Shown: in pieces, positions 17,348 through 25,866 of the stretch
Layout of the letters: every line of letters begins with the position of its first letter
Position numbering within the stretch: the stretch's first letter is position 1
Notes under the pieces: model-generated
The model's database searches: none
What the model saw: the letters and a program-made list of their open reading frames with translations, nothing else
Told to the model about the DNA's origin: nothing
Assembly: GCA_002894665.1 (NCBI GenBank)
Contig: NCRB01000019.1
Location: 1-44,953, forward strand
DNA: 44,953 bases
Source of the DNA: Salinivenus iranica
GTDB taxonomy: Bacteria > Bacteroidota > Rhodothermia > Rhodothermales > Salinibacteraceae
Reading direction: 5' to 3'
Position numbers and translations under genes: made by a program

Positions 17348-19093
17348 TCACACCAGTCGGCGACTGCGGAGGCAGCGCTGAAGCCACTGCTTTTTGCGCT
17401 TCAGGAGTTTGAGGCTCATGTCGGACTGCGCTTTGCGAAATCGCTCCTTCGCCTTCGCATGGACGTCCCGGATGTGAACGTCCATGCCCCGGTTTTCGAG
17501 GGTGTGGGCCACCTGCGTGGCCAGCTCCGCGCACTCTTTCCGGAGCTTTTCCTCCCGGGCCGATAGGTCGAGCGTGTCAGGATCCGGTTCCTCAAACGGC
17601 TGGCGCTGCACCTGCAGGTTGGCATCCCGGCTGTTGCTCTCCAGCTCCAGCCGATGCGTTTCAATGTCGCCCTCATTCACCCCTGTTAGCGCCCACTCCG
17701 AGGCCTCGTCGTTTTGTTCAACCTTCTCAGGCGCGGTCCCTTCTTCCGTCCGGCGCCGCAGGCCCTCCTGCACCTCGCGCGTCATCCAGTCGAGGGTCTG
17801 AGAGAGGCCCAGGTCGCCCGAGGTAAACACGTCGCACACGTTGGCCGCCTCGTCCCAGCCGTCGTAGTACCGCATGCCGCGGAAGATCTGCTGCAGCGTT
17901 TTGGAGCGGGCGCTCACGAGATCCAGCTTGGCGATGACGCTGATGGTTTTGATGTCGGTGCCCTCGCCAATCATGTCGACCTGCACCATCACGTCCACGT
18001 CGCCCTGGCGGTAGGCCTCCAGGCGTTTTTCCCGCTCGTCGCGCGACACGTCCTGTCCGATGCGCGTGGTGGTGAACCAGCCGTAGCGCCGCTCCATGAA
18101 GTCGAGCACGTCGGCCGCGTGGCGGTTGCTCATGCAGGTGACGAGCATCTGGTGATTGCGCTCGTCGCCGGGCCCGAAGTGGCGGGCCCGCTTTTCCTGC
18201 AGTCGCCCCACGGCCGGGCCCAGCAGGGTGTCGAGGTATACGTCGTGGAAGCGGAGGCTGCGGCGGGCGAAGTAGCGGTCGAGGTGTGCGGTGTCGCGGC
18301 CCACCTCGTTTTTCAGTTCAGCGAGGCTCACCTCCACCTCCTCTCCGGTGTCCTCCTCCACCATCGTAATGGTGTAGTCGACCACGTGCGCCTCGATGCG
18401 CTTCAGGATCTGGCCCTCGGCGTGCGCGTCGCGCAGGCTCACCTCGTGGAGGGCGCGGTAGTGGAGCTGCTCCTGGCCGCTGTCGGTCGTTTCCACGTCG
18501 TGCGGGACCCCAAAGAGCGGCTGGCCGTCGCTGCGGAGGGGCGTGCCCGAGAGGCCGATAAGCGAGTCGTACGGCAGCCGCCCCACGGCCTGCGACCAGG
18601 CGCCCTCCTCGGGCAGGTGGTGGATCTCGTCGAGCACAAAGAGCGGCGATCCCTGCTGGCAGTAGCGCTGCAGGTCGCTGTTGCCGGATTGCCCGCAGGC
18701 GTACTGGTAGGTCGCGATGACGATGGGGATGTCGGGGTTCTTGACGAACACGCGGTCCGCGTCGGCCACGCAGAACGGCATGCGGGGCGCCCCGATCCAG
18801 CGGAGCATGCGGGCCATCTCGTCCGCGTCGGCGTACTGCTCCTGCAGGTTGCTGCGGGGCACGAACACCACCAGCTTGTCGCACACGCCCATGGCGCGGG
18901 CCACGGCGAAGGAGGCGAGGGCCGTCAGCGTCTTGCCGTAGCCAGGCACGAAGACGCCAAGGTGATCGGTGCGGCCCTCCTGGTAGGCCCGGGCGAGCTT
19001 GGCGAGGAAGGCGAGCTGCCCCTCGCGGAACGAGAAGTCGTCGGCGGGGGCGAGGCCGGGGAGGTTGGCGGCGTCGATGTTGGGAATAGACAT
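17348..19093 (-). CDS. Superfamily 2 DEAD/DEAH-type helicase
   Basis: A 581-residue ATP-dependent SF2 helicase/translocase of the ResIII/UvrB-like group. Motifs in order: FREGQ near 22 (Q-like motif), Walker A PGYGKT (50-55), DEIHH (155-159, motif II), SGTPLRSDG (182-190, motif III-like), DMIGEGTDI (373-381, motif V) and QQIFRGMRY (401-409, motif VI). The last 120 residues are highly charged and helical, with many Glu, Arg and Lys, and may bind nucleic acid or a partner. No nuclease or methylase domain is visible, so it is not a whole restriction enzyme. It lies 171 bases downstream of jetD on the same strand, so it may be part of, or just next to, the defence operon. Exact role unknown. Confidence 0.85.
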   Translation of the reverse strand: MSIPNIDAANLPGLAPADDFSFREGQLAFLAKLARAYQEGRTDHLGVFVPGYGKTLTALASFAVARAMGVCDKLVVFVPRSNLQEQYADADEMARMLRWIGAPRMPFCVADADRVFVKNPDIPIVIATYQYACGQSGNSDLQRYCQQGSPLFVLDEIHHLPEEGAWSQAVGRLPYDSLIGLSGTPLRSDGQPLFGVPHDVETTDSGQEQLHYRALHEVSLRDAHAEGQILKRIEAHVVDYTITMVEEDTGEEVEVSLAELKNEVGRDTAHLDRYFARRSLRFHDVYLDTLLGPAVGRLQEKRARHFGPGDERNHQMLVTCMSNRHAADVLDFMERRYGWFTTTRIGQDVSRDEREKRLEAYRQGDVDVMVQVDMIGEGTDIKTISVIAKLDLVSARSKTLQQIFRGMRYYDGWDEAANVCDVFTSGDLGLSQTLDWMTREVQEGLRRRTEEGTAPEKVEQNDEASEWALTGVNEGDIETHRLELESNSRDANLQVQRQPFEEPDPDTLDLSAREEKLRKECAELATQVAHTLENRGMDVHIRDVHAKAKERFRKAQSDMSLKLLKRKKQWLQRCLRSRRLV

Positions 19094-19264
19094 AGAGATA
19101 CTGCGAGGCGACAGACACTGCAGAGGGTAACCGGGGCGACGGCCCCAGGCACAAACACCGCCCCCAACGTAGGGGTTACGAGATGGAGCCGAAAGCAGTC
19201 TGGATAGACGTTTCGGGAAATTGGTTTGCTTGAATGTGGTGGTTCATTCTGCGCGTGTCCATTT

Positions 19265-20185
19265 TCAATCGTCCTCTTGCAAAGCCTTGTGCAGGAGGAT
19301 CTCTTGCTCTAGCCCTTGCCCATACCGATGAAGCAGACGCAGAAGCCGTTGGATGTCTGGATGTGAGGCCTCAGCCAGCCCGTCGAGACGAGCAGCGCTG
19401 TCCGCGTAAAGATCGGATTTTCCATACCGCTCAAGAAGCACTTCCAGTCCATCCGGCCAAAACAGCCGGGCTTGCGATCCGCACACGTTATACAAGCGTT
19501 GAAATTCGCTCAGTCCTACAGGGTCGTAGTCGGGACAGTGGATGAGACTTCCAGTCCCAATGTCGAGCGCACCGAGCCACCCAACCATCCGGGTGGAAAG
19601 GACCCCCCCTCCGAGACACGCCAGCCGTGCCGTCGTGCCAAGGTCCTCAAAGCGCAGGAAGGCCTCCCGATTCTCCACGACGGCCAGGGACTCCTCAATG
19701 GCAATCGACGTGTCAGAGCCAAGCACCACGGCAGCGACCCCTGCTGTTTCGGTGAGTTGTCCCACCCGAAACGGAGACCCTTCATAGGTGATCGTCGTAC
19801 CGGGTGCGCCACGAAACAAGAGCACTTCGTCCCCGGCCGTTCCTCGTTTTGCATCCCGAAAGTGCGTCACTGCTTCGGAAGCCGGGAGAGCTCCATCGGC
19901 TCCACGGTCCGCAGCCGCACGCGCATCGTCGAGCCCGGAGGGATACCTTTTTTCGGCAAACTGCCGGACCACCTCCTCGTTTTGAACCGCGAGACGTCGG
20001 CCGCCTCCAGAACGCTCTACCGTCAACACGCCCGCCTCACGAAGAGAGCGAAGCTGGTCTCGCTGCTTAGTACTTACGCTACTCCAAGGCACACCCCCCT
20101 CGTCCAGAAGCCGACCCAGTGTCTGAATGAGTCCGTCTGCCATCCCGAAAGCTTTTTCAATCACAGATGCCGTGAGCGGGTTCAC
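19265..20185 (-). CDS. jetD: Wadjet subunit JetD, TOPRIM nuclease
   Basis: Fourth gene of a Wadjet (MksG/JetD-type) system; in studied systems JetD cuts plasmid DNA that the SMC complex has recognised by extrusion. The 306-residue protein begins with a winged-helix-like region (1-80: QRDQLRSLREAGVLTVER) and ends with a TOPRIM domain related to topoisomerase VI/Spo11. Catalytic residues are present: Glu171 in VVENREAF and Asp219/Asp221 in CPDYDPVGL; a terminal GQGLEQE resembles the family's closing motif. It is short: type I JetD proteins have, as I recall, about 390-400 residues. Starts: GTG at 20185 (taken here), GTG at 20203 overlapping jetC by 11 bases, or ATG at 20143. The long upstream open frame is a shadow of jetC. 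Confidence 0.85.
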   Translation of the reverse strand: MNPLTASVIEKAFGMADGLIQTLGRLLDEGGVPWSSVSTKQRDQLRSLREAGVLTVERSGGGRRLAVQNEEVVRQFAEKRYPSGLDDARAAADRGADGALPASEAVTHFRDAKRGTAGDEVLLFRGAPGTTITYEGSPFRVGQLTETAGVAAVVLGSDTSIAIEESLAVVENREAFLRFEDLGTTARLACLGGGVLSTRMVGWLGALDIGTGSLIHCPDYDPVGLSEFQRLYNVCGSQARLFWPDGLEVLLERYGKSDLYADSAARLDGLAEASHPDIQRLLRLLHRYGQGLEQEILLHKALQEDD

Positions 20186-20192
20186 ATCCGAA

Positions 20193-23006
20193 CTACCGGC
20201 CACTCGCAACGGACGAGCGAGGCCCTCCACTGGCCGTCTCCTCCTTCTGTCGAAGCTCAACCCGATGTTCGGGCCCGAGATAAACCCGCTCGCCATTCGA
20301 CTGAAGGTAGTAAATGTGCCGGACGGCCGTCGACTCAGACGGACTTGCAAGAACGGGAACGAACCCCATCTCGGTCGAGGCCCGCACGACCCCTTCGAGG
20401 TTGCTCTCGTCCAGGCTTGACGCTTCGTCGAGATAGAACGGAAGCCGGAGGGCGTCTTCCCGCAGTAGATCATTGATGAGCACCAGGTGCACGAGCACCT
20501 TGATCGTGATCGACGTTCCGTTGGATTGGATGTTGTCCAGCCCGTCGTACCGCTCGGTCCCTCCATCGACGGTCGTGACCGCAAATCCGACGTTGAAGAG
20601 ATCCGTGAGATGAATCTGCGGATGTCCCTGGAAAAGCTCTTTCAGTTGCCGGAGGTCCTCTTCAATCTCCCCCTCGCCCCCGAAGAGCGGCATTGCGTCG
20701 TGCTTCGCGACGCGCTCCAGAAGATCCGTAAATGACTCGATCGGCGTGATGTCCAAACGAAGACGCTCCAAATCCGAAACGGACGTTCCCCGAAGCCGGC
20801 GATTCATGCGGTCGACGACGCTCTGAATGGTCTCCAGGCTCGACAGGAGGTCGTTGATCTTTCGTCCCAGCCCGGTCATCAACTCGTCCCACAACGTTTC
20901 AAGTGTACGACGGCGAGCGTCGAGCCCTTCTCTTTGGTCGCGGAGTTCCTCAAGGGTAGCGGCTCTTGTGTCTTTCTTATACTCGCCGTAGGTGCCGCTG
21001 TGAATGCGATCCAGAGTCCTCTGTAGCCGATTTGAGGCGCGAGATTCCCGCTCTCTCTCCTTCTGATACTGGTCTGCCCAAGAGAGAATGTCCGCTCCAG
21101 CCGTCTCCGTCCCGATTGAGGGAAGAACTGGGGACTGATCTACTTGAGGGCCTGCCCCCTCCGGGTGGGCGACCGTCAGGTACCGCCCCCACGCCGGGGG
21201 AGGCGCCTCGAGTGTGCGCATTTGGGTTTCGATCCTCTCCGTTTGCGTCCGGAGCTGCTCAAGCTGAGACCGGCAAGTCCGACGCTCTCGCTTCAGATTC
21301 TGTAGTGCGGTCTCCTTCTCGGCCAGACGCTCTTTCGTGGTGTTCAACACATCGGTTCGATCGGCAATTTGGGACCGCACAGACTGGAGCTTCTCTTCTG
21401 CCGCCACTGCTTTCTCATACGTCTTCATCTTCGACTGAAGCTCCTCAAGGCGATCACCGATCTTCTCGGCCTTTCGACGCCTCGAAGTCACGTCCCGCGC
21501 AATCTCCAAGCGGCGGTCAAGCCGTTCGTACTCGGTGCGTCGCTGCTTCAGCTCGTTTCGAATGCGGTCCGGATCCGTATAGTCGGCGAGACCGGGATCT
21601 GAAAGGGCCGCAAGCGAAAGGTGACCGCCCGGAAAGTGCCAGCGTCCCTCGTCGAAACGATCACCGTGAGACCGTAAGCTCCGGAGCAATTCGTCCAGAT
21701 CGTCGAGGACAATCTCCTCCCCGTCGACGTTCAGTTCCAAGAGGTGAGGATTGAGAATCCGAAAGAGTCGCGTCAGCCGATCCTCCCCGAGATGCCTTTT
21801 CAATAGCGGCCCCATCAGGTCCTGGAGCCCCTCTAGGCGTTTTTGAAGACGCTTTATCGTGTTTTCAGCCCGGGTGCGGCGCTTCTGGATCTCTTCGGGA
21901 TCATCGGTGTCCGCCGACTTGAGGTCGGCGAGAATTTGTGCCTGCTTGTCCTTGAGCTCATCGATTCGGGCGGCCACCTCTTCCGGCTCGAAGTCGGAAA
22001 ACTGGCCAATCAGATCGGTGAGCTCTTCTTCTTTTCCGTTGAGCCGTCCGAGATTGCGGTTCACCTCGTCCCGTTTTTCTACGAGCGCCTGCTTCTCCTC
22101 CTGCACCGCTTGCAGGGCCGATTCCGTCTGTCGAATCTCGCGTTGAAGCTGCTGCTGTGTCCCCCGAAGAGACGCGCTCTGCCGACTGTTCGCCCGAAGA
22201 AGCCGGATCCACCCTTCGCCCGATCGGCGCCGAAGCTCCGATTGCCGGTTCGCGTGACGAAGCGCGTCCTCGATGTCCGCCTCGTGGCGCTTTAGGTGGG
22301 CAATCTCACGCCGGTATCGCTGCATTTTTTCAAACTCCTCGGCGTGGGCCTCTTTCAGGTTGATCTCGAGCGCCTCCATCTCCGAGGCATAGGTGCTGCA
22401 GAGCGTCTGCTTCAGGGCGTTCTGATCGAGTCGTCGGAGGCGAATGAGGCCCTTGAAGAGATTCCGGAATTTTGCGTAGCCGTTGTGGTCCTGCACCGGA
22501 ATGAGTCCCAGATTGAGGCCTTCACTCTCTCCAATCCCAGTGAGAGCGGCCCGAAGGGTTCGGGCCTCCAACTCCCGAAAGTCCTTCAGACTGAGCGCCT
22601 GTTTTATATCCTCGACCTCTCGGGGCACCGTCCCCTCCTCGGACGAGGCCACAAAATCCGTCTTCTCAAATTCGCCGCAGAAGGCAAATCGCTGGATGTC
22701 GTGTCCGTCCGCCGGTCCTTTTCCGTAGGCGCCGACCACCTGCATGCCCTCCGGGGTGAGGCACTCGAAGAGCACGTAGCTCCGACGATCGGGAAAGTAG
22801 TACGACTTCGTGTCCCGCCAGCTGTACCCGGGAAACGACATGTGGCTCTCCTTGTCGATGTAGAGCAGCTGAAGAATGTTGACCAGGGTGGTCTTGCCAA
22901 CATTGTTGGGTCCTACGAGATGCAGGGGCCTGGTGAGATCCACGTCGGCGTAGCTGAATTTCGCCGCGTTGATGAGGATGAGTCGCGTCGGTCCAGTGGT
23001 GGGCAT
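20193..23006 (-). CDS. jetC: Wadjet subunit JetC, SMC/MukB-like ATPase
   Basis: The motor of the JetABC complex: an SMC-like ATPase thought to extrude DNA loops and sense small circular DNA. In the 937-residue reading the N-terminal head has Walker A GPNNVGKTT (32-40). Long coiled coils run from about 210-400 and 480-600, with a compact hinge-like part between (405-480). The C-terminal head has a signature-like NGTSITIKVLVHLVL (829-843) and Walker B LPFYLDEAS (855-863; Asp860, Glu861). It is short for a MukB relative (E. coli MukB is about 1490). The ATG at 23006 gives a family-like beginning; a GTG at 23081 would overlap the jetB stop as GTGA and add 25 basic residues. GC is lower than in the flanks, as expected partly from Lys/Glu-rich coils. 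Confidence 0.92.
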   Translation of the reverse strand: MPTTGPTRLILINAAKFSYADVDLTRPLHLVGPNNVGKTTLVNILQLLYIDKESHMSFPGYSWRDTKSYYFPDRRSYVLFECLTPEGMQVVGAYGKGPADGHDIQRFAFCGEFEKTDFVASSEEGTVPREVEDIKQALSLKDFRELEARTLRAALTGIGESEGLNLGLIPVQDHNGYAKFRNLFKGLIRLRRLDQNALKQTLCSTYASEMEALEINLKEAHAEEFEKMQRYRREIAHLKRHEADIEDALRHANRQSELRRRSGEGWIRLLRANSRQSASLRGTQQQLQREIRQTESALQAVQEEKQALVEKRDEVNRNLGRLNGKEEELTDLIGQFSDFEPEEVAARIDELKDKQAQILADLKSADTDDPEEIQKRRTRAENTIKRLQKRLEGLQDLMGPLLKRHLGEDRLTRLFRILNPHLLELNVDGEEIVLDDLDELLRSLRSHGDRFDEGRWHFPGGHLSLAALSDPGLADYTDPDRIRNELKQRRTEYERLDRRLEIARDVTSRRRKAEKIGDRLEELQSKMKTYEKAVAAEEKLQSVRSQIADRTDVLNTTKERLAEKETALQNLKRERRTCRSQLEQLRTQTERIETQMRTLEAPPPAWGRYLTVAHPEGAGPQVDQSPVLPSIGTETAGADILSWADQYQKERERESRASNRLQRTLDRIHSGTYGEYKKDTRAATLEELRDQREGLDARRRTLETLWDELMTGLGRKINDLLSSLETIQSVVDRMNRRLRGTSVSDLERLRLDITPIESFTDLLERVAKHDAMPLFGGEGEIEEDLRQLKELFQGHPQIHLTDLFNVGFAVTTVDGGTERYDGLDNIQSNGTSITIKVLVHLVLINDLLREDALRLPFYLDEASSLDESNLEGVVRASTEMGFVPVLASPSESTAVRHIYYLQSNGERVYLGPEHRVELRQKEETASGGPRSSVASGR

Positions 23007-23077
23007 CGGACTGGATACACGTAAATGAATGGCGGAGACATTGAAATGCCGGCCGACTCTCCTGAACTGTCGTCTCT

Positions 23078-23668
23078 TCACTCAATTGAGGAAGAATCGG
23101 CCAGGTCTGGGGAATCGATAGCGGAATCCTGAGACGTTGAGACCTCTTCCGCCTCCCCCTCCTTAAGATCTGAGGCCTCGCGGCAGAGGTCCAAAAACCG
23201 GTAGGCGGCCCTTCGAAGCATAAAACCAGTGTCGACCCTCTTCGCGAACCCGAATCGCACCAGGGACCTCACGATGCCGTCCAGGTCGTCGGCGTCGTGG
23301 ACGTCAATGGCATTCATGTACTCCTCGTACCGGGCCGTTTTCAGGTGGGGCAGGTCCTCAATTCGGAACCCCGTGTCGAACAATGAGGGAACAATCGACG
23401 AATGGGTTTCGCCAAAGTGCTCAACGAGGACCAGCATGAACAGGCCCATCCGTCGTGCTTGCTTCCCCGGCTGCACGTTGTCGTTTGCAACCAGGTAAAC
23501 CACGTTCTTCGGATGCTTCTTCAGATCGAGCCCGAGGCTGTCAAACAAGCGCTGATACTCCCCAAACCGGTCCCAGAGCGTGCGGTAGACCTCGCCGTCC
23601 TCCGGGGTGAAATGATACCCCCGGCGGAGCTTGTTAAAAATAGGTTCGAGGTGGGGAAGAGAATCCAT
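23078..23668 (-). CDS. jetB: Wadjet subunit JetB, MukE/MksE-like
   Basis: A 196-residue protein placed where the MukE-like kite subunit belongs, between the kleisin (jetA) and SMC (jetC) genes. It has a predicted winged-helix fold: PEDGEVYRTLWDRFGEYQRLF, then KNVVYLVANDNVQPGKQARRMGLFMLVLVEHF, then a second helical domain with IVRSLVRFGFAKRVDTGFML, which resembles the wing of MksE/DUF4194-type proteins. The C-terminal 30 residues are acidic and probably disordered. In MukBEF-like complexes this subunit binds the kleisin and DNA. The stop at 23078 overlaps the alternative GTG start of jetC. The 63-base gap before it is longer than the other gaps in the operon. Confidence 0.82.
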   Translation of the reverse strand: MDSLPHLEPIFNKLRRGYHFTPEDGEVYRTLWDRFGEYQRLFDSLGLDLKKHPKNVVYLVANDNVQPGKQARRMGLFMLVLVEHFGETHSSIVPSLFDTGFRIEDLPHLKTARYEEYMNAIDVHDADDLDGIVRSLVRFGFAKRVDTGFMLRRAAYRFLDLCREASDLKEGEAEEVSTSQDSAIDSPDLADSSSIE

Positions 23669-23710
23669 ATCCTCGACGACTTGGGTGACAGAACGAGCGG
23701 CTCAGACTGG

Positions 23711-23729
23711 TTTGGCACCAAACATTATA
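23711..23729 (-). promoter_or_regulatory. TATAAT box and inverted repeat between jetA and jetB
   Basis: The 63-base gap between jetA and jetB holds, on the minus strand, TATAAT (23729-23724) immediately followed by the inverted repeat TTTGG-TG-CCAAA (23722-23711). No matching -35 or TTTG element is visible at the right distance. It may be an internal promoter with an overlapping operator, or chance in an AT-rich gap. Confidence 0.3.
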
Positions 23730-23731
23730 AT

Positions 23732-24961
23732 TTACCGAGAAGAGAAGCCTTCCTCGACCCTTATCCGAACCGGAACGGCCGACAGTACTGTGTCCCCGAA
23801 ATCGTATTCCCTTCGCGTGTCTCCGAATGTTGCCGACAACGTCTCGCTCTGCAGAAGGTAGCGGTAGGCTCGAAGGGTTCGCAGGGGGCCGGCGTCCCGT
23901 TCATCAATGAGCCAGGCCATCGCGTCGGGGATCGGACAGGTCGCGTGCGCATCTGAGATGAGTTCTTCCCTGTCGAGCACCGAGGGGACGCGTGACGACG
24001 AAGGCTCCTGAATGGGCTCCGGGTCCGGCGGTTCGTATCCCGCCATGTCGTGCAGATACGAACTGAGGCCCTCCTCCCGAAACACTGTTCGCATTCTGAA
24101 GCTCGCGAGCTCCATTTCTTCAATCAACTTCAGCGAATCCGCCCCCTCGTGGTGAACGCGGTTCAAAAGCGAGGACGCGCCTTCGAGGATGTCGCTATTC
24201 GTCTCGTGCTGCTCGTATAGACGGGTCGTTTCTCGCCGGGCGGCCTCGAAGTTCTCGAGGACGGTTCGCCGAACGCGTCGGAGTCGCGCCCTCGTCGATT
24301 TGAGATCTTGAACAAGGGAGGGTTCGTCCGAAAAAGCAGTCTGTGCTTCGCCAAGCATCACCCTGAGTTGGGAAAAACGCTTCTCAAACGGCCCCCGACT
24401 CTGGACGATGTTTTGAAGCGGCGTGACGTAGTCGTCGAGTAGCTCATTAATCATCGCAAAGCGCTCCCGAACGGAGTGGGACATCGTTTCGGCCCGGAGC
24501 TCGGTTACACGGTTCAGAACCGCCTCCCGGTTCGATCGAGAGAGCGTACGAATATTCTCAATTTCGGTATCGATATGTTCGAGCACGCGCTCTACGCCCG
24601 GGCCGTTAGACTCCTCGGTGCGGTGATCGAGTCGCTCCATGAGTTCTTCCAGACGATCGAGGTACGCCTGGATGGCCTTCGGTGTGCTTAGCTTCTGCTT
24701 TCGCCGGAACTCTCGAAAAAGCTGGCGCACTGGGGGCGTAAGTTCGAAGGACGCCGTCTCTTCAGGACGGGGCTCGATCAGCCGGTGTGTCTGAAACTGT
24801 CGGAAAACGTGCCCGGCGGAGGCCGTGTGGGGGGAGTCGTTGCCCAGTCGGGAGCGGAGTTCAGTCTCCCGCATTCCCTTCCGGGCGTCGAAGAGCGCCT
24901 CCAGCGTTTCGAAGTGCTGATGCGCCAACCGGAAAAACGTTTTGATGTCGGGCGTGGACAT
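23732..24961 (-). CDS. jetA: Wadjet subunit JetA, MukF/MksF-like kleisin
   Basis: First gene of the Wadjet operon. The 409-residue protein is almost entirely helical. Residues 1-75 form a winged-helix-like domain with ETELRSRLGNDSPHTASAGHVFRQF, residues 80-300 are long amphipathic helices, and the C-terminal 100 residues (from about 320) form a second small domain. This order matches the kleisin subunits MukF/MksF/JetA (DUF3375-like in type I), which bridge the SMC heads. Sequence identity to well-known members looks low, so the assignment rests on gene order and architecture. It starts 11 bases after the menB stop, with no room for its own promoter, so it is probably read through from menB or from a promoter inside menB. 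Confidence 0.8.
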   Translation of the reverse strand: MSTPDIKTFFRLAHQHFETLEALFDARKGMRETELRSRLGNDSPHTASAGHVFRQFQTHRLIEPRPEETASFELTPPVRQLFREFRRKQKLSTPKAIQAYLDRLEELMERLDHRTEESNGPGVERVLEHIDTEIENIRTLSRSNREAVLNRVTELRAETMSHSVRERFAMINELLDDYVTPLQNIVQSRGPFEKRFSQLRVMLGEAQTAFSDEPSLVQDLKSTRARLRRVRRTVLENFEAARRETTRLYEQHETNSDILEGASSLLNRVHHEGADSLKLIEEMELASFRMRTVFREEGLSSYLHDMAGYEPPDPEPIQEPSSSRVPSVLDREELISDAHATCPIPDAMAWLIDERDAGPLRTLRAYRYLLQSETLSATFGDTRREYDFGDTVLSAVPVRIRVEEGFSSR

Positions 24962-24972
24962 AAGATTTCAGT

Positions 24973-25866
24973 CTAATAGTGCCAGGGCACATCGCTCCAG
25001 TCCGGCTCCCGCCCCTCCAGAAACGCATCGCGGCCCTCCTGCGCCTCGTCGGTCATGTACGCCAGGCGGGTCGCCTCGCCGGCAAAGACCTGCTGCCCCA
25101 CCATGCCGTCGTCCACCGCATTGAAGGCGTACTTGAGCATGCGGATGGCCGTGGGGCTCTTGCCGTTGATCGTCTCGGCCCAGTCGAGGGCCGTCTCCTC
25201 CAGCTCGTCGTGCGGGACCGCCTCGTTGGCCATGCCCATCTCCACGGCCTCCGCCGCGGAGTAGGTCTTGCCAAGGAAGAAGATCTCGCGCGCCTTCTTC
25301 TGGCCTACCTGCCGCGCCAGCAGGGCCGAGCCAAAGCCGCCGTCGAAGCTGGCGACGTCGGGATCGGTCTGCTTAAAGGCGGCGTGCTCACGGCTGGCGA
25401 GGGTGAGATCACACACCACGTGCAGGCTGTGCCCCCCGCCGACGGCCCAGCCCGGCACCACGGCAATCACCACCTTGGGCATGAACCGGATGAGGCGCTG
25501 GACCTCCAGGATGTGCAGGCGTCCCGGACGCGCCTCGTCCGCCTCGCCTTCCTCGTCCTCGTACTGGTACCCGTCGGCGCCGCGAATGCGCTGGTCGCCG
25601 CCCGACGAAAACGCCCACTTGCCGTGTTTCTCCGAGGGGCCGTTGCCGGTGAGCAGCACGCAGCCCACATCGGCACTCTGGCGGGCATGATCGAGGGCCT
25701 GGTACAGCTCGTCCACCGTGGGCGGACGAAAGGCATTCAGCACCTCGGGGCGGTCGAATGCGATGCGGACCGTGCCGTGGGCCTCGGCGCGGTGGTAGGT
25801 CACATCGTCGAACTCGAAGCCCTCAACGGGCGTCCAGGCATCGGCGGCAAAAAGATCAGAAACCAC
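24973..25866 (-). CDS. menB: 1,4-dihydroxy-2-naphthoyl-CoA synthase
   Basis: Crotonase-fold enzyme closing the second ring in menaquinone synthesis, in the cytoplasm. The 297 residues include AFSSGGDQ (oxyanion hole region), PGWAVGGGHSLHVVCDLTLAS, and FKQTDPDVASFDGGFGSALLARQ. The Asp in QTDP is the feature of MenB enzymes that supply a side-chain carboxylate instead of using bicarbonate (as in mycobacteria), where the other class has Gly. An acidic stretch in the middle (DEEGEADEA) fits a halophile. The start is GTG at 25866; no nearby ATG fits. Other men genes are not in the window. The jet operon follows after 11 bases. A near-palindrome lies upstream at 25911-25928. Confidence 0.95.
   Translation of the reverse strand: MVSDLFAADAWTPVEGFEFDDVTYHRAEAHGTVRIAFDRPEVLNAFRPPTVDELYQALDHARQSADVGCVLLTGNGPSEKHGKWAFSSGGDQRIRGADGYQYEDEEGEADEARPGRLHILEVQRLIRFMPKVVIAVVPGWAVGGGHSLHVVCDLTLASREHAAFKQTDPDVASFDGGFGSALLARQVGQKKAREIFFLGKTYSAAEAVEMGMANEAVPHDELEETALDWAETINGKSPTAIRMLKYAFNAVDDGMVGQQVFAGEATRLAYMTDEAQEGRDAFLEGREPDWSDVPWHY

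What the first reader, a model, noticed from the sequence alone, without database searches (positions are those of the whole stretch)
19265..24961. Complete Wadjet (JetABCD) SMC plasmid-defence operon
Four consecutive genes on the minus strand match the kleisin, kite, SMC and TOPRIM subunits. The SMC keeps Walker A (GPNNVGKTT) and Walker B (FYLDEAS); the nuclease keeps Glu171 and Asp219/Asp221. Nothing is broken, so the system may be active. JetA and JetB look distant from the members I know, JetC is only about 937 residues and JetD about 306, so this could be a divergent type in a halophile. Hand counts show GC of 31/60 at 22021-22080 against 42/60 at 25141-25200.
Basis: partly seen in the sequence, partly recalled or inferred. 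Interest (0 to 1): 0.85.

Follow-up and report, generated by a model that had tools for sequence, protein, structure and literature searches.

The report
Untyped Wadjet-like SMC nuclease operon
A salt-loving bacterium carries an intact, mobile four-gene machine that probably reels in circular DNA and cuts it; it belongs to a little-described branch whose DNA-packing relatives sometimes carry the cutting part and sometimes do not.

Summary
The four genes are real, intact and ordered kleisin, KITE, SMC, TOPRIM nuclease (24961-19265, minus strand). It does not fit PADLOC's Wadjet types I-III. The SMC (937 aa) scores 196 bits on NCBIfam's Mks-condensin SMC model but 23 bits or less on JetC models. 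The nuclease (292 aa) is about 100 aa shorter than canonical JetD and alone reaches only E 0.005; a 12-member profile still aligns with canonical JetD (91%), with E, DxD..G and LEQE in register. The operon is accessory: found in 5 of 41 genomes (own included), beside a resident SMC, with empty sites, and with a phylogeny that disagrees with its insertion site. Relatives sit on plasmids of Salinibacter, Pseudomonas, Neptuniibacter, Halioglobus, Polaromonas and Bacteroidota. In the Bacteroidota branch, SMC cores with and without the nuclease are interleaved (a single nuclease-less clade is rejected, p-AU 1e-8), including a pair 65% identical. Best reading: an untyped, short-SMC branch of the Wadjet/Mks superfamily that cleaves circular DNA, with a detachable nuclease. 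Function is inferred; no activity was tested, and both structure models were too poor to use.

The parts
23732..24961 (-). A: kleisin (JetA/MksF-like), 409 aa
   Evidence: NCBIfam NF040857 60.8 bits, matched by 11 of 12 members, window included; low-confidence model whose Foldseek ranks 1-4 are chains of MukBEF, MukEF and JetABCD entries at E 0.017-0.051
23078..23668 (-). B: KITE subunit (JetB/MksE-like), 196 aa
   Evidence: Pfam MksE 81 bits, 12 of 12 members; profile hits MukE at E 9e-6
20193..23006 (-). C: SMC ATPase (JetC/MksB-like), 937 aa; the ORF opens at 23081
   Evidence: NCBIfam NF040859 196.5 bits; Walker A, signature and Walker B intact
19265..20143 (-). D: short TOPRIM nuclease (JetD/MksG-like), 292 aa; alternative GTG start at 20185
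   Evidence: start shared with relatives; hhalign 91% to canonical JetD; DUF7281 in 11 of 12 members at E up to 1
22887..22913 (-). SMC Walker A GPNNVGKTT
   Evidence: G and K invariant in 12 members
20511..20525 (-). SMC signature motif SNGTS
   Evidence: S and G invariant in 12 members
20409..20438 (-). SMC Walker B FYLDEASSLD
   Evidence: D and E invariant in 12 members
19673..19675 (-). nuclease E157, TOPRIM glutamate
   Evidence: invariant in 12 of 12
19523..19531 (-). nuclease D205-Y-D207, TOPRIM DxD
   Evidence: both D invariant in 12 of 12; aligned with DLD of canonical JetD
19301..19312 (-). nuclease LEQE motif (278-281)
   Evidence: E279 and E281 invariant in 12 of 12; aligned with LEQE of canonical JetD
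24973..25866 (-). upstream border: enoyl-CoA hydratase family gene, ending 11 bp before A; not part of the system
   Evidence: in 13 of 13 genus genomes
17348..19093 (-). downstream border: SF2 helicase gene; not part of the system
   Evidence: in 13 of 13 genus genomes

Best explanation
An intact, accessory, horizontally moving SMC nuclease system that works like Wadjet. A, B and C form a kleisin-KITE-SMC motor that binds DNA and, using ATP, extrudes loops. D is a metal-dependent TOPRIM endonuclease carried by the complex. When the motor has reeled in a whole small or medium circle, D is activated and cuts both strands, so plasmids or circular phage intermediates are lost while the chromosome is spared. 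Shown here: gene order, intactness, catalytic motifs, profile homology of B, C and D to canonical Wadjet subunits, mobility, and a separate housekeeping SMC. Inferred from the Wadjet literature: loop extrusion, D activation, circle-specific cleavage. The lineage is a short-SMC, short-nuclease branch on the Mks side of the superfamily, outside PADLOC's types I-III.
For: SMC: NF040859 196 bits against JetC models of 23 or less; 11 of 12 members match NF040859, while 2 of 2 canonical JetC and 2 of 2 nuclease-less Bacteroidota SMCs scanned do not at E 0.001, and one further canonical JetC (G180) does so at only 22 bits. D: hhalign 91% to canonical JetD, six wrong-subunit controls 0.2-2.1%, catalytic motifs in register, eight residues including E and DxD invariant in 12 of 12. 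Linkage: 5 of 5 genomes with A also have D; D beside C in 11 of 15 plasmid records; all four genes together in a changed order C-D-A-B in G217. Accessory: full-length SMC in G000, above cut-off in 15 of 17 genomes. Mobile: at least three sites (genus site, G008 contig 236, plasmid pSR76) and a tree conflict with the flanks. Defence company on pSR76: GmrSD and a SNF2/PLD helicase. Wadjet mechanism: PMC10586767 (passages).
Against: No activity data. The profile signal to canonical JetD and JetB needs the wide set: with the six Salinibacteraceae sequences alone it is 6% for D, 9% for B and 51% for C. A is not securely related to canonical JetA by profile (3.5% with all 12, 21% with the six). AF2 models of D and A failed (pLDDT 39 and 41) and the fold search with D found nothing sensible. 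D lacks about 100 residues before the TOPRIM part of canonical JetD, so control of the nuclease may differ. In the genus the chromosomal insertion site is a general cargo site, not a defence island, and none of four neighbours of the G008 copy hits PADLOC at E 0.001.
Confidence: 0.72

Rival explanations
1. An accessory MksBEF-type condensin that organises a replicon (the chromosome, or the plasmid it came from), with D acting as a topoisomerase-like or regulatory partner rather than a plasmid killer.
For: SMC and kleisin are closest to NCBIfam Mks condensin models; nuclease-less three-gene relatives exist in Bacteroidota; relatives occur on large plasmids.
Against: Patchy presence with empty sites and a resident full-length SMC; invariant TOPRIM acidic residues in 12 of 12.
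Confidence: 0.15
2. A plasmid-borne competition module: the system first served plasmids against rival plasmids and was captured by the chromosome.
For: The sister group of the window and S. lutea copies is the G008 copy plus the copy on S. ruber plasmid pSR76; SMC relatives lie on 15 plasmid records; operon GC is below that of its surroundings.
Against: PLSDB holds only plasmids, so the sample is biased; the G006 copy at the same site has host-like GC 0.668; some 'plasmid' records have biosynthetic genes next to the operon and may be chromosomal. It does not exclude the best explanation; it concerns who benefits.
Confidence: 0.1
3. A Rad50/SbcC-like or Lamassu-like SMC system misread as Wadjet.
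For: PADLOC's best hit for the SMC is LmuB at 38.7 bits, and NCBIfam lists Rad50 at 29 bits.
Against: Their best stretches lie in the coiled coil (P0003 residues 578-805 and 508-625), whereas NF040859 covers head and arm from residue 30; kleisin and KITE genes are present, which these systems lack (recalled).
Confidence: 0.03

Closest known systems
Wadjet / JetABCD (MksBEFG), types I-III
   Same: Same four functions in the same order; related KITE, SMC head and TOPRIM part, with E, DxD..G and LEQE aligned.
   Different: Smaller A (409 vs 481-506), C (937 vs 1133-1171) and D (292 vs 380-403) than eight canonical operons from the same phylum; separate SMC clade, 100/100; A not securely related; PADLOC Jet models score 23 bits or less.
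MksBEF condensin (NCBIfam NF040857-NF040859; that these were built on the Pseudomonas aeruginosa complex is recalled)
   Same: Best family matches for kleisin and SMC; model lengths 412/232/926 fit A 409, B 196, C 937.
   Different: Scores far below the equivalog cut-offs (196 of 1900 bits for the SMC); the P. aeruginosa complex is described as having probably lost JetD (PMC10586767, passages), whereas this operon has it.
Bacteroidota three-gene Mks-like operons (L136, L139, L140, L155)
   Same: SMCs fall on the Mks side of the tree.
   Different: SMC 1209-1234 aa; no D gene and no significant D remnant in the fetched stretches.
MukBEF
   Same: B profile matches MukE at E 9e-6; 2 of 12 B members hit Pfam MukE.
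   Different: No MukB family match for C in Pfam or NCBIfam; MukBEF has no TOPRIM gene (recalled).

Membership tests
Wadjet types I-III | Four-gene kleisin-KITE-SMC-TOPRIM operon | tested here: met
   the kleisin call rests on NF040857
Wadjet types I-III | Subunits recognised by the JetA-D models of type I, II or III | tested here: not met
   no JetA; JetB1 E 3e-5; JetC3 E 5e-6 with its best stretch in the coiled coil; JetD1 E 0.005. The PADLOC program with its own rules was not run
Wadjet types I-III | SMC groups with canonical JetC in a tree | tested here: not met
   eight canonical JetC form one side of a branch, 100/100, apart from the Mks rows; midpoint root; types II and III were not knowingly sampled
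Wadjet types I-III | TOPRIM active-site E and DxD in the fourth subunit | tested here: met
Wadjet types I-III | N-terminal region of JetD of canonical length | tested here: not met
   the alignment starts at column 146 here and 246 in canonical JetD; the short N-terminal part could not be judged (model pLDDT 46-58 there)
Wadjet types I-III | Restriction of small circular plasmids | not testable with these tools
   needs an assay
MksBEF condensin (NCBIfam equivalogs) | Score above the curated equivalog cut-off | tested here: not met
   60.8 of 750, 73.3 of 400, 196.5 of 1900 bits
MksBEF condensin (NCBIfam equivalogs) | Homology of kleisin, KITE and SMC to the Mks models | tested here: met
   Pfam MksE also hits the eight canonical JetB at 37-83 bits, so the KITE match does not discriminate
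MksBEF condensin (NCBIfam equivalogs) | Role in chromosome organisation | not testable with these tools
   patchy presence beside a resident SMC argues against an essential role
Rad50/SbcC | Head-domain match and an SbcD/Mre11 partner | tested here: not met
   best Rad50 stretches in the coiled coil; the operon partners are kleisin, KITE and TOPRIM genes

The most novel reading that the evidence does not exclude
This lineage is an unclassified Wadjet type built on the Mks condensin core, and its superfamily shows that the nuclease is a plug-in: the same SMC-kleisin-KITE core has switched between armed (with D) and unarmed more than once. Pseudomonas-type MksBEF condensins would then be disarmed members of this short-SMC branch, and comparing armed and unarmed cores that are 65% identical would show what turns a loop extruder into a circle-specific nuclease.
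Probability: 0.4. Interest if true: 0.78.

Novelty: new variant of a known kind. Interest (0 to 1): 0.62.

Why it matters
Most work on plasmid defence by SMC nucleases concerns type I (review PMC10586767, passages). This branch has a smaller motor and a smaller nuclease, scores poorly on the PADLOC models used here (release of 2023) and so is probably missed by such scans, and sits closer to a chromosome condensin. If it cleaves circles, it is a compact version of the machine. The armed and unarmed pairs give a direct test of how one kind of complex can serve either chromosome packing or DNA destruction, which that review's abstract calls a paradox.

Tried and rejected
The Foldseek search with D gave unrelated proteins and is not used. 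The search with A put chains of MukBEF, MukEF and JetABCD entries at ranks 1-4, but at E 0.017-0.051 and from a poor model, so it is a lead only. Sequence searches of the PDB with D gave nothing or nothing significant (best E 0.5). Four scans of viral contigs found no homologue of D, and for the SMC one weak match. I first read Pfam MksE as separating this KITE from JetB; one search showed that canonical JetB scores 37-83 bits too, so I dropped that argument. I considered the low GC as proof of recent import and dropped it as such, because the G006 copy at the same site is at 0.668. I considered the neighbouring helicase as part of the system and rejected it: it is in 13 of 13 genus genomes, with or without the operon. 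Lamassu and Rad50 were rejected (coiled-coil matches). I considered replacement of the SMC arms by another allele: A, B and D differ from the S. lutea copy at dS 0.12-0.14 but C at 0.49, yet in each window of the SMC the S. lutea allele stays closer than those of G008 and pSR76; recombination with an unsampled allele stays possible. Of twelve canonical Wadjet stretches fetched, four were left out of the comparison because the operon was incomplete or unclear in the ORF list (L108, L109, L111, L114).

Full report
WHAT IS THERE. Operon GC is 0.589 against 0.667 and 0.649 for the two sides. A begins 11 bp after the end of an enoyl-CoA hydratase family gene, in the same direction. Against the Salinivenus lutea copy, dN/dS is 0.18 (A), 0.11 (B), 0.18 (C) and 0.24 (D), so the genes are under purifying selection. 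L007 (S. lutea) and the G001 contig have the same length and the same operon proteins, and are counted once.

WHAT THE SUBUNITS ARE. C: NCBIfam NF040859 196.5 bits, E 6e-58; the best PADLOC JetC is 22.6 bits with its best stretch in the coiled coil, and PADLOC's best hit overall is LmuB, 38.7 bits, also there. A: NF040857 60.8 bits. B: NF040858 73 bits and Pfam MksE 81 bits. D alone: PADLOC JetD1 E 0.005, and DUF7281 E 0.006, below Pfam's cut-off. NCBIfam calls the 926-aa SMC model 'MksF' and the 412-aa model that matches the kleisin 'MksB', whereas PMC10123090 (passages) calls MksB the homologue of JetC. Walker A, signature and Walker B of C are intact, and key residues are invariant in 12 members.

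D IS A JETD-TYPE TOPRIM PROTEIN. Of 12 members of the D alignment, window included, 11 match DUF7281 (best E 2e-11), 4 match Pfam JetD_C (best 1.5e-4) and 5 match PADLOC JetD1 PDLC00533 (best 3e-7), all at E up to 1. A profile of the 12 against eight canonical JetD from the same phylum gives 91.1%, E 1e-6, over the C-terminal half; six wrong-subunit comparisons give 0.2-2.1%. In that alignment VENREAF meets ITENEIN, PDYDPVG meets GDLDTHG, and LEQE meets LEQE. K99, E157, N158, D205, D207, G210, E279 and E281 are invariant in 12 of 12. The weak side: with only the six Salinibacteraceae sequences the same comparison gives 6% for D, 9% for B and 51% for C; with the five proteobacterial ones 47%, 94% and 87%. 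A gives 3.5% with the wide set and 21% with the six.

A DISTINCT LINEAGE. Twelve loci of this lineage have A 396-441, B 179-238, C 926-966 (Persicobacter 1233) and D 285-336 aa; eight canonical operons have 481-506, 191-248, 1133-1171 and 380-403. The twelve were chosen because their SMC or D was found by similarity to the window's. The eight are canonical in that their D is above Pfam's JetD_C cut-off; four more fetched stretches were left out as incomplete or unclear. In an SMC tree of 27 rows the eight canonical JetC are on one side of a branch (100/100) and the Mks rows on the other. NF040859 is matched by 11 of 12 members, by neither of two canonical JetC nor of two nuclease-less Bacteroidota SMCs scanned at E 0.001, and by a third canonical JetC, that of G180, at 22 bits. 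P. aeruginosa MksB, MukB and known types II and III could not be placed in the tree, as no such sequences were fetched.

ACCESSORY AND MOBILE. D is found in 6 of 41 genomes, own included (in G021 only a fragment, 68 residues matched), and A in 5 of 41, all five with D. Over the class, 21 of 146 genomes have an SMC-profile match; three are full-length and have D beside them, and the other 18 are short head-domain matches of 18-24 bits (G006 and G008 were evidently not drawn). Over the phylum, D is found in 4 of 395 genomes. A full-length housekeeping SMC is in the window's own genome and above cut-off in 15 of 17 genomes tested; the other two are incomplete assemblies. The flanking hydratase and helicase are in 13 of 13 genus genomes. 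At the ten other sites read the gap holds the operon in G006; is 0.36-0.39 kb in G008, G010 and G012; holds an S9-peptidase-like gene in G003, G004, G007 and G011; an SDR-like gene in G002; and no clear gene in G009 (these cargo names are by eye). G001 holds the operon at the same place; G005 was split over contigs and not read. The G006 operon sits at the same site, and its flanks are the nearest to the window's after G001, yet its SMC is 49% identical. The G008 operon sits elsewhere, in a genome with more distant flanks, yet its SMC is 69% identical, and it pairs with the S. ruber plasmid copy (98/98). D breaks this pattern: G006 D is 68% and G008 D is 65% identical to the window D, which hints that D and ABC have partly separate histories.

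RELATIVES ON PLASMIDS. tblastn of the SMC against PLSDB gave 15 records at E 0.01; all 15 were fetched. D lies directly after C in 10, lies before C in one (Photobacterium, no A or B detected) and is absent in three (Persicobacter pPP3, Persicobacter JZB09 plasmid 2, Parabacteroides). One cannot be judged: in Bacteroides finegoldii the C frame stops at 734 aa, 86 bases before the end of the record. Some subunits were placed by position and size only: A in L030 and B in L025, L028 and L030 had no phmmer hit from the window query, though 12 of 12 B members match Pfam MksE and one A member of 12 does not match NF040857; A in L136, L139, L140 and L142, and B in L142, had no hit. On S. ruber plasmid pSR76 the operon lies by a GmrSD-type restriction gene and a SNF2/PLD helicase, while four neighbours of the G008 copy hit nothing in PADLOC. 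G217 has all four genes in the order C-D-A-B (B).

ARMED AND UNARMED CORES. In a tree of 20 SMC rows, four without D and 16 with D (the eight canonical rows and Photobacterium left out, G424 and G217 added), holding the four together costs 135 log-likelihood units, p-AU 1e-8. Phocaeicola (D present) and G424 (D absent) are sisters at 100/100. Their SMCs are 65% identical over 1220 columns. Searching the stretches around the G424, pPP3, JZB09 plasmid 2 and Parabacteroides cores with five D proteins gives no significant match (best E 0.04, 32 residues, inside C). The change cannot be polarised, since the root is a midpoint; G217 is a long branch; and starred branches alone force at least two changes of state, three being the fewest on the tree. 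A review proposes that P. [quoted passage not shown] the present data show that such switches, gain or loss, happened more than once in a sister branch.

HOW IT PROBABLY WORKS. By the Wadjet model (PMC10586767, passages) the motor extrudes DNA until two motors meet on a circle, and the TOPRIM nuclease then cuts. In C, identity between the window and S. lutea is high in the first 180 residues, again at 361-480 and after 650, and lower at 241-360 and 480-650. I read this as heads, hinge and two short coiled-coil arms (inference). D lacks about 100 residues before the TOPRIM part, so the region that holds canonical JetD shut may be reduced (inference).

WHAT IS IN PRINT. Listings of searches for Wadjet with MksBEF or MksG, for JetABCD and types, for Wadjet-like, JetD-like or type IV terms, for DUF7281 and the Pfam accessions (no paper) and for Salinibacter with Wadjet (no paper) showed me no paper on this lineage in the held open library; I read passages of nine papers, none in full. 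PMC7485682 (passages) says that several families of MksBEF, each distantly homologous to another, had been discovered. The 2011 paper on the MksBEF family (PMC3179180) is not held and may contain this branch. So I claim an undescribed variant only within what I could search.

Noticed in passing
17348-25866 and the same site in same-genus genomes: A cargo-variable chromosomal site between a genus-wide enoyl-CoA hydratase gene and a genus-wide SF2 helicase gene: empty, S9-peptidase-like, SDR-like or SMC nuclease contents.
   Followed up: partly
20193-23006 against L007:8076-10889: The SMC gene differs from the S. lutea allele far more (dS 0.49) than A, B and D do (0.12-0.14), most in the arm regions; possibly a recombined allele.
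   Followed up: partly
L156:2235-8326 and L157:3501-9623: Two other four-gene operons (A 456/437, B 224/215, C 1056/1080, D 305/317 aa) that no PADLOC model hits at E 0.01; D carries CEN and DWDYxGL motifs, so probably another untyped SMC-TOPRIM lineage, although hhalign of D to the other D sets is only 3-7%.
   Followed up: partly
L135:3669-7362: Photobacterium damselae plasmid with a D-like gene in front of a 958-aa SMC and no detectable kleisin or KITE gene.
   Followed up: no
L154 and L161 (G217): Permuted operon order C-D-A-B with all four genes kept.
   Followed up: partly
L136, L139, L140, L155: Nuclease-less three-gene Mks-like operons in Bacteroidota; PMC10197239 (passages) reports that no known condensin was found in two Bacteroidetes species, for which such operons could be candidates.
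   Followed up: no
L138:2157-7109: A related operon in Bacteroides finegoldii 'plasmid 5' begins next to an annotated class A beta-lactamase gene, and its SMC frame stops early at 734 aa near the record's end.
   Followed up: no
NCBIfam NF040857 and NF040859: The names MksB and MksF look swapped relative to PMC10123090: the 412-aa 'MksB' model matches the kleisin and the 926-aa 'MksF' model the SMC.
   Followed up: no
19265-20143 (D) against G006: D of G006 is 68% identical to the window D while its A, B and C are 49-53%: D and ABC may recombine separately.
   Followed up: no
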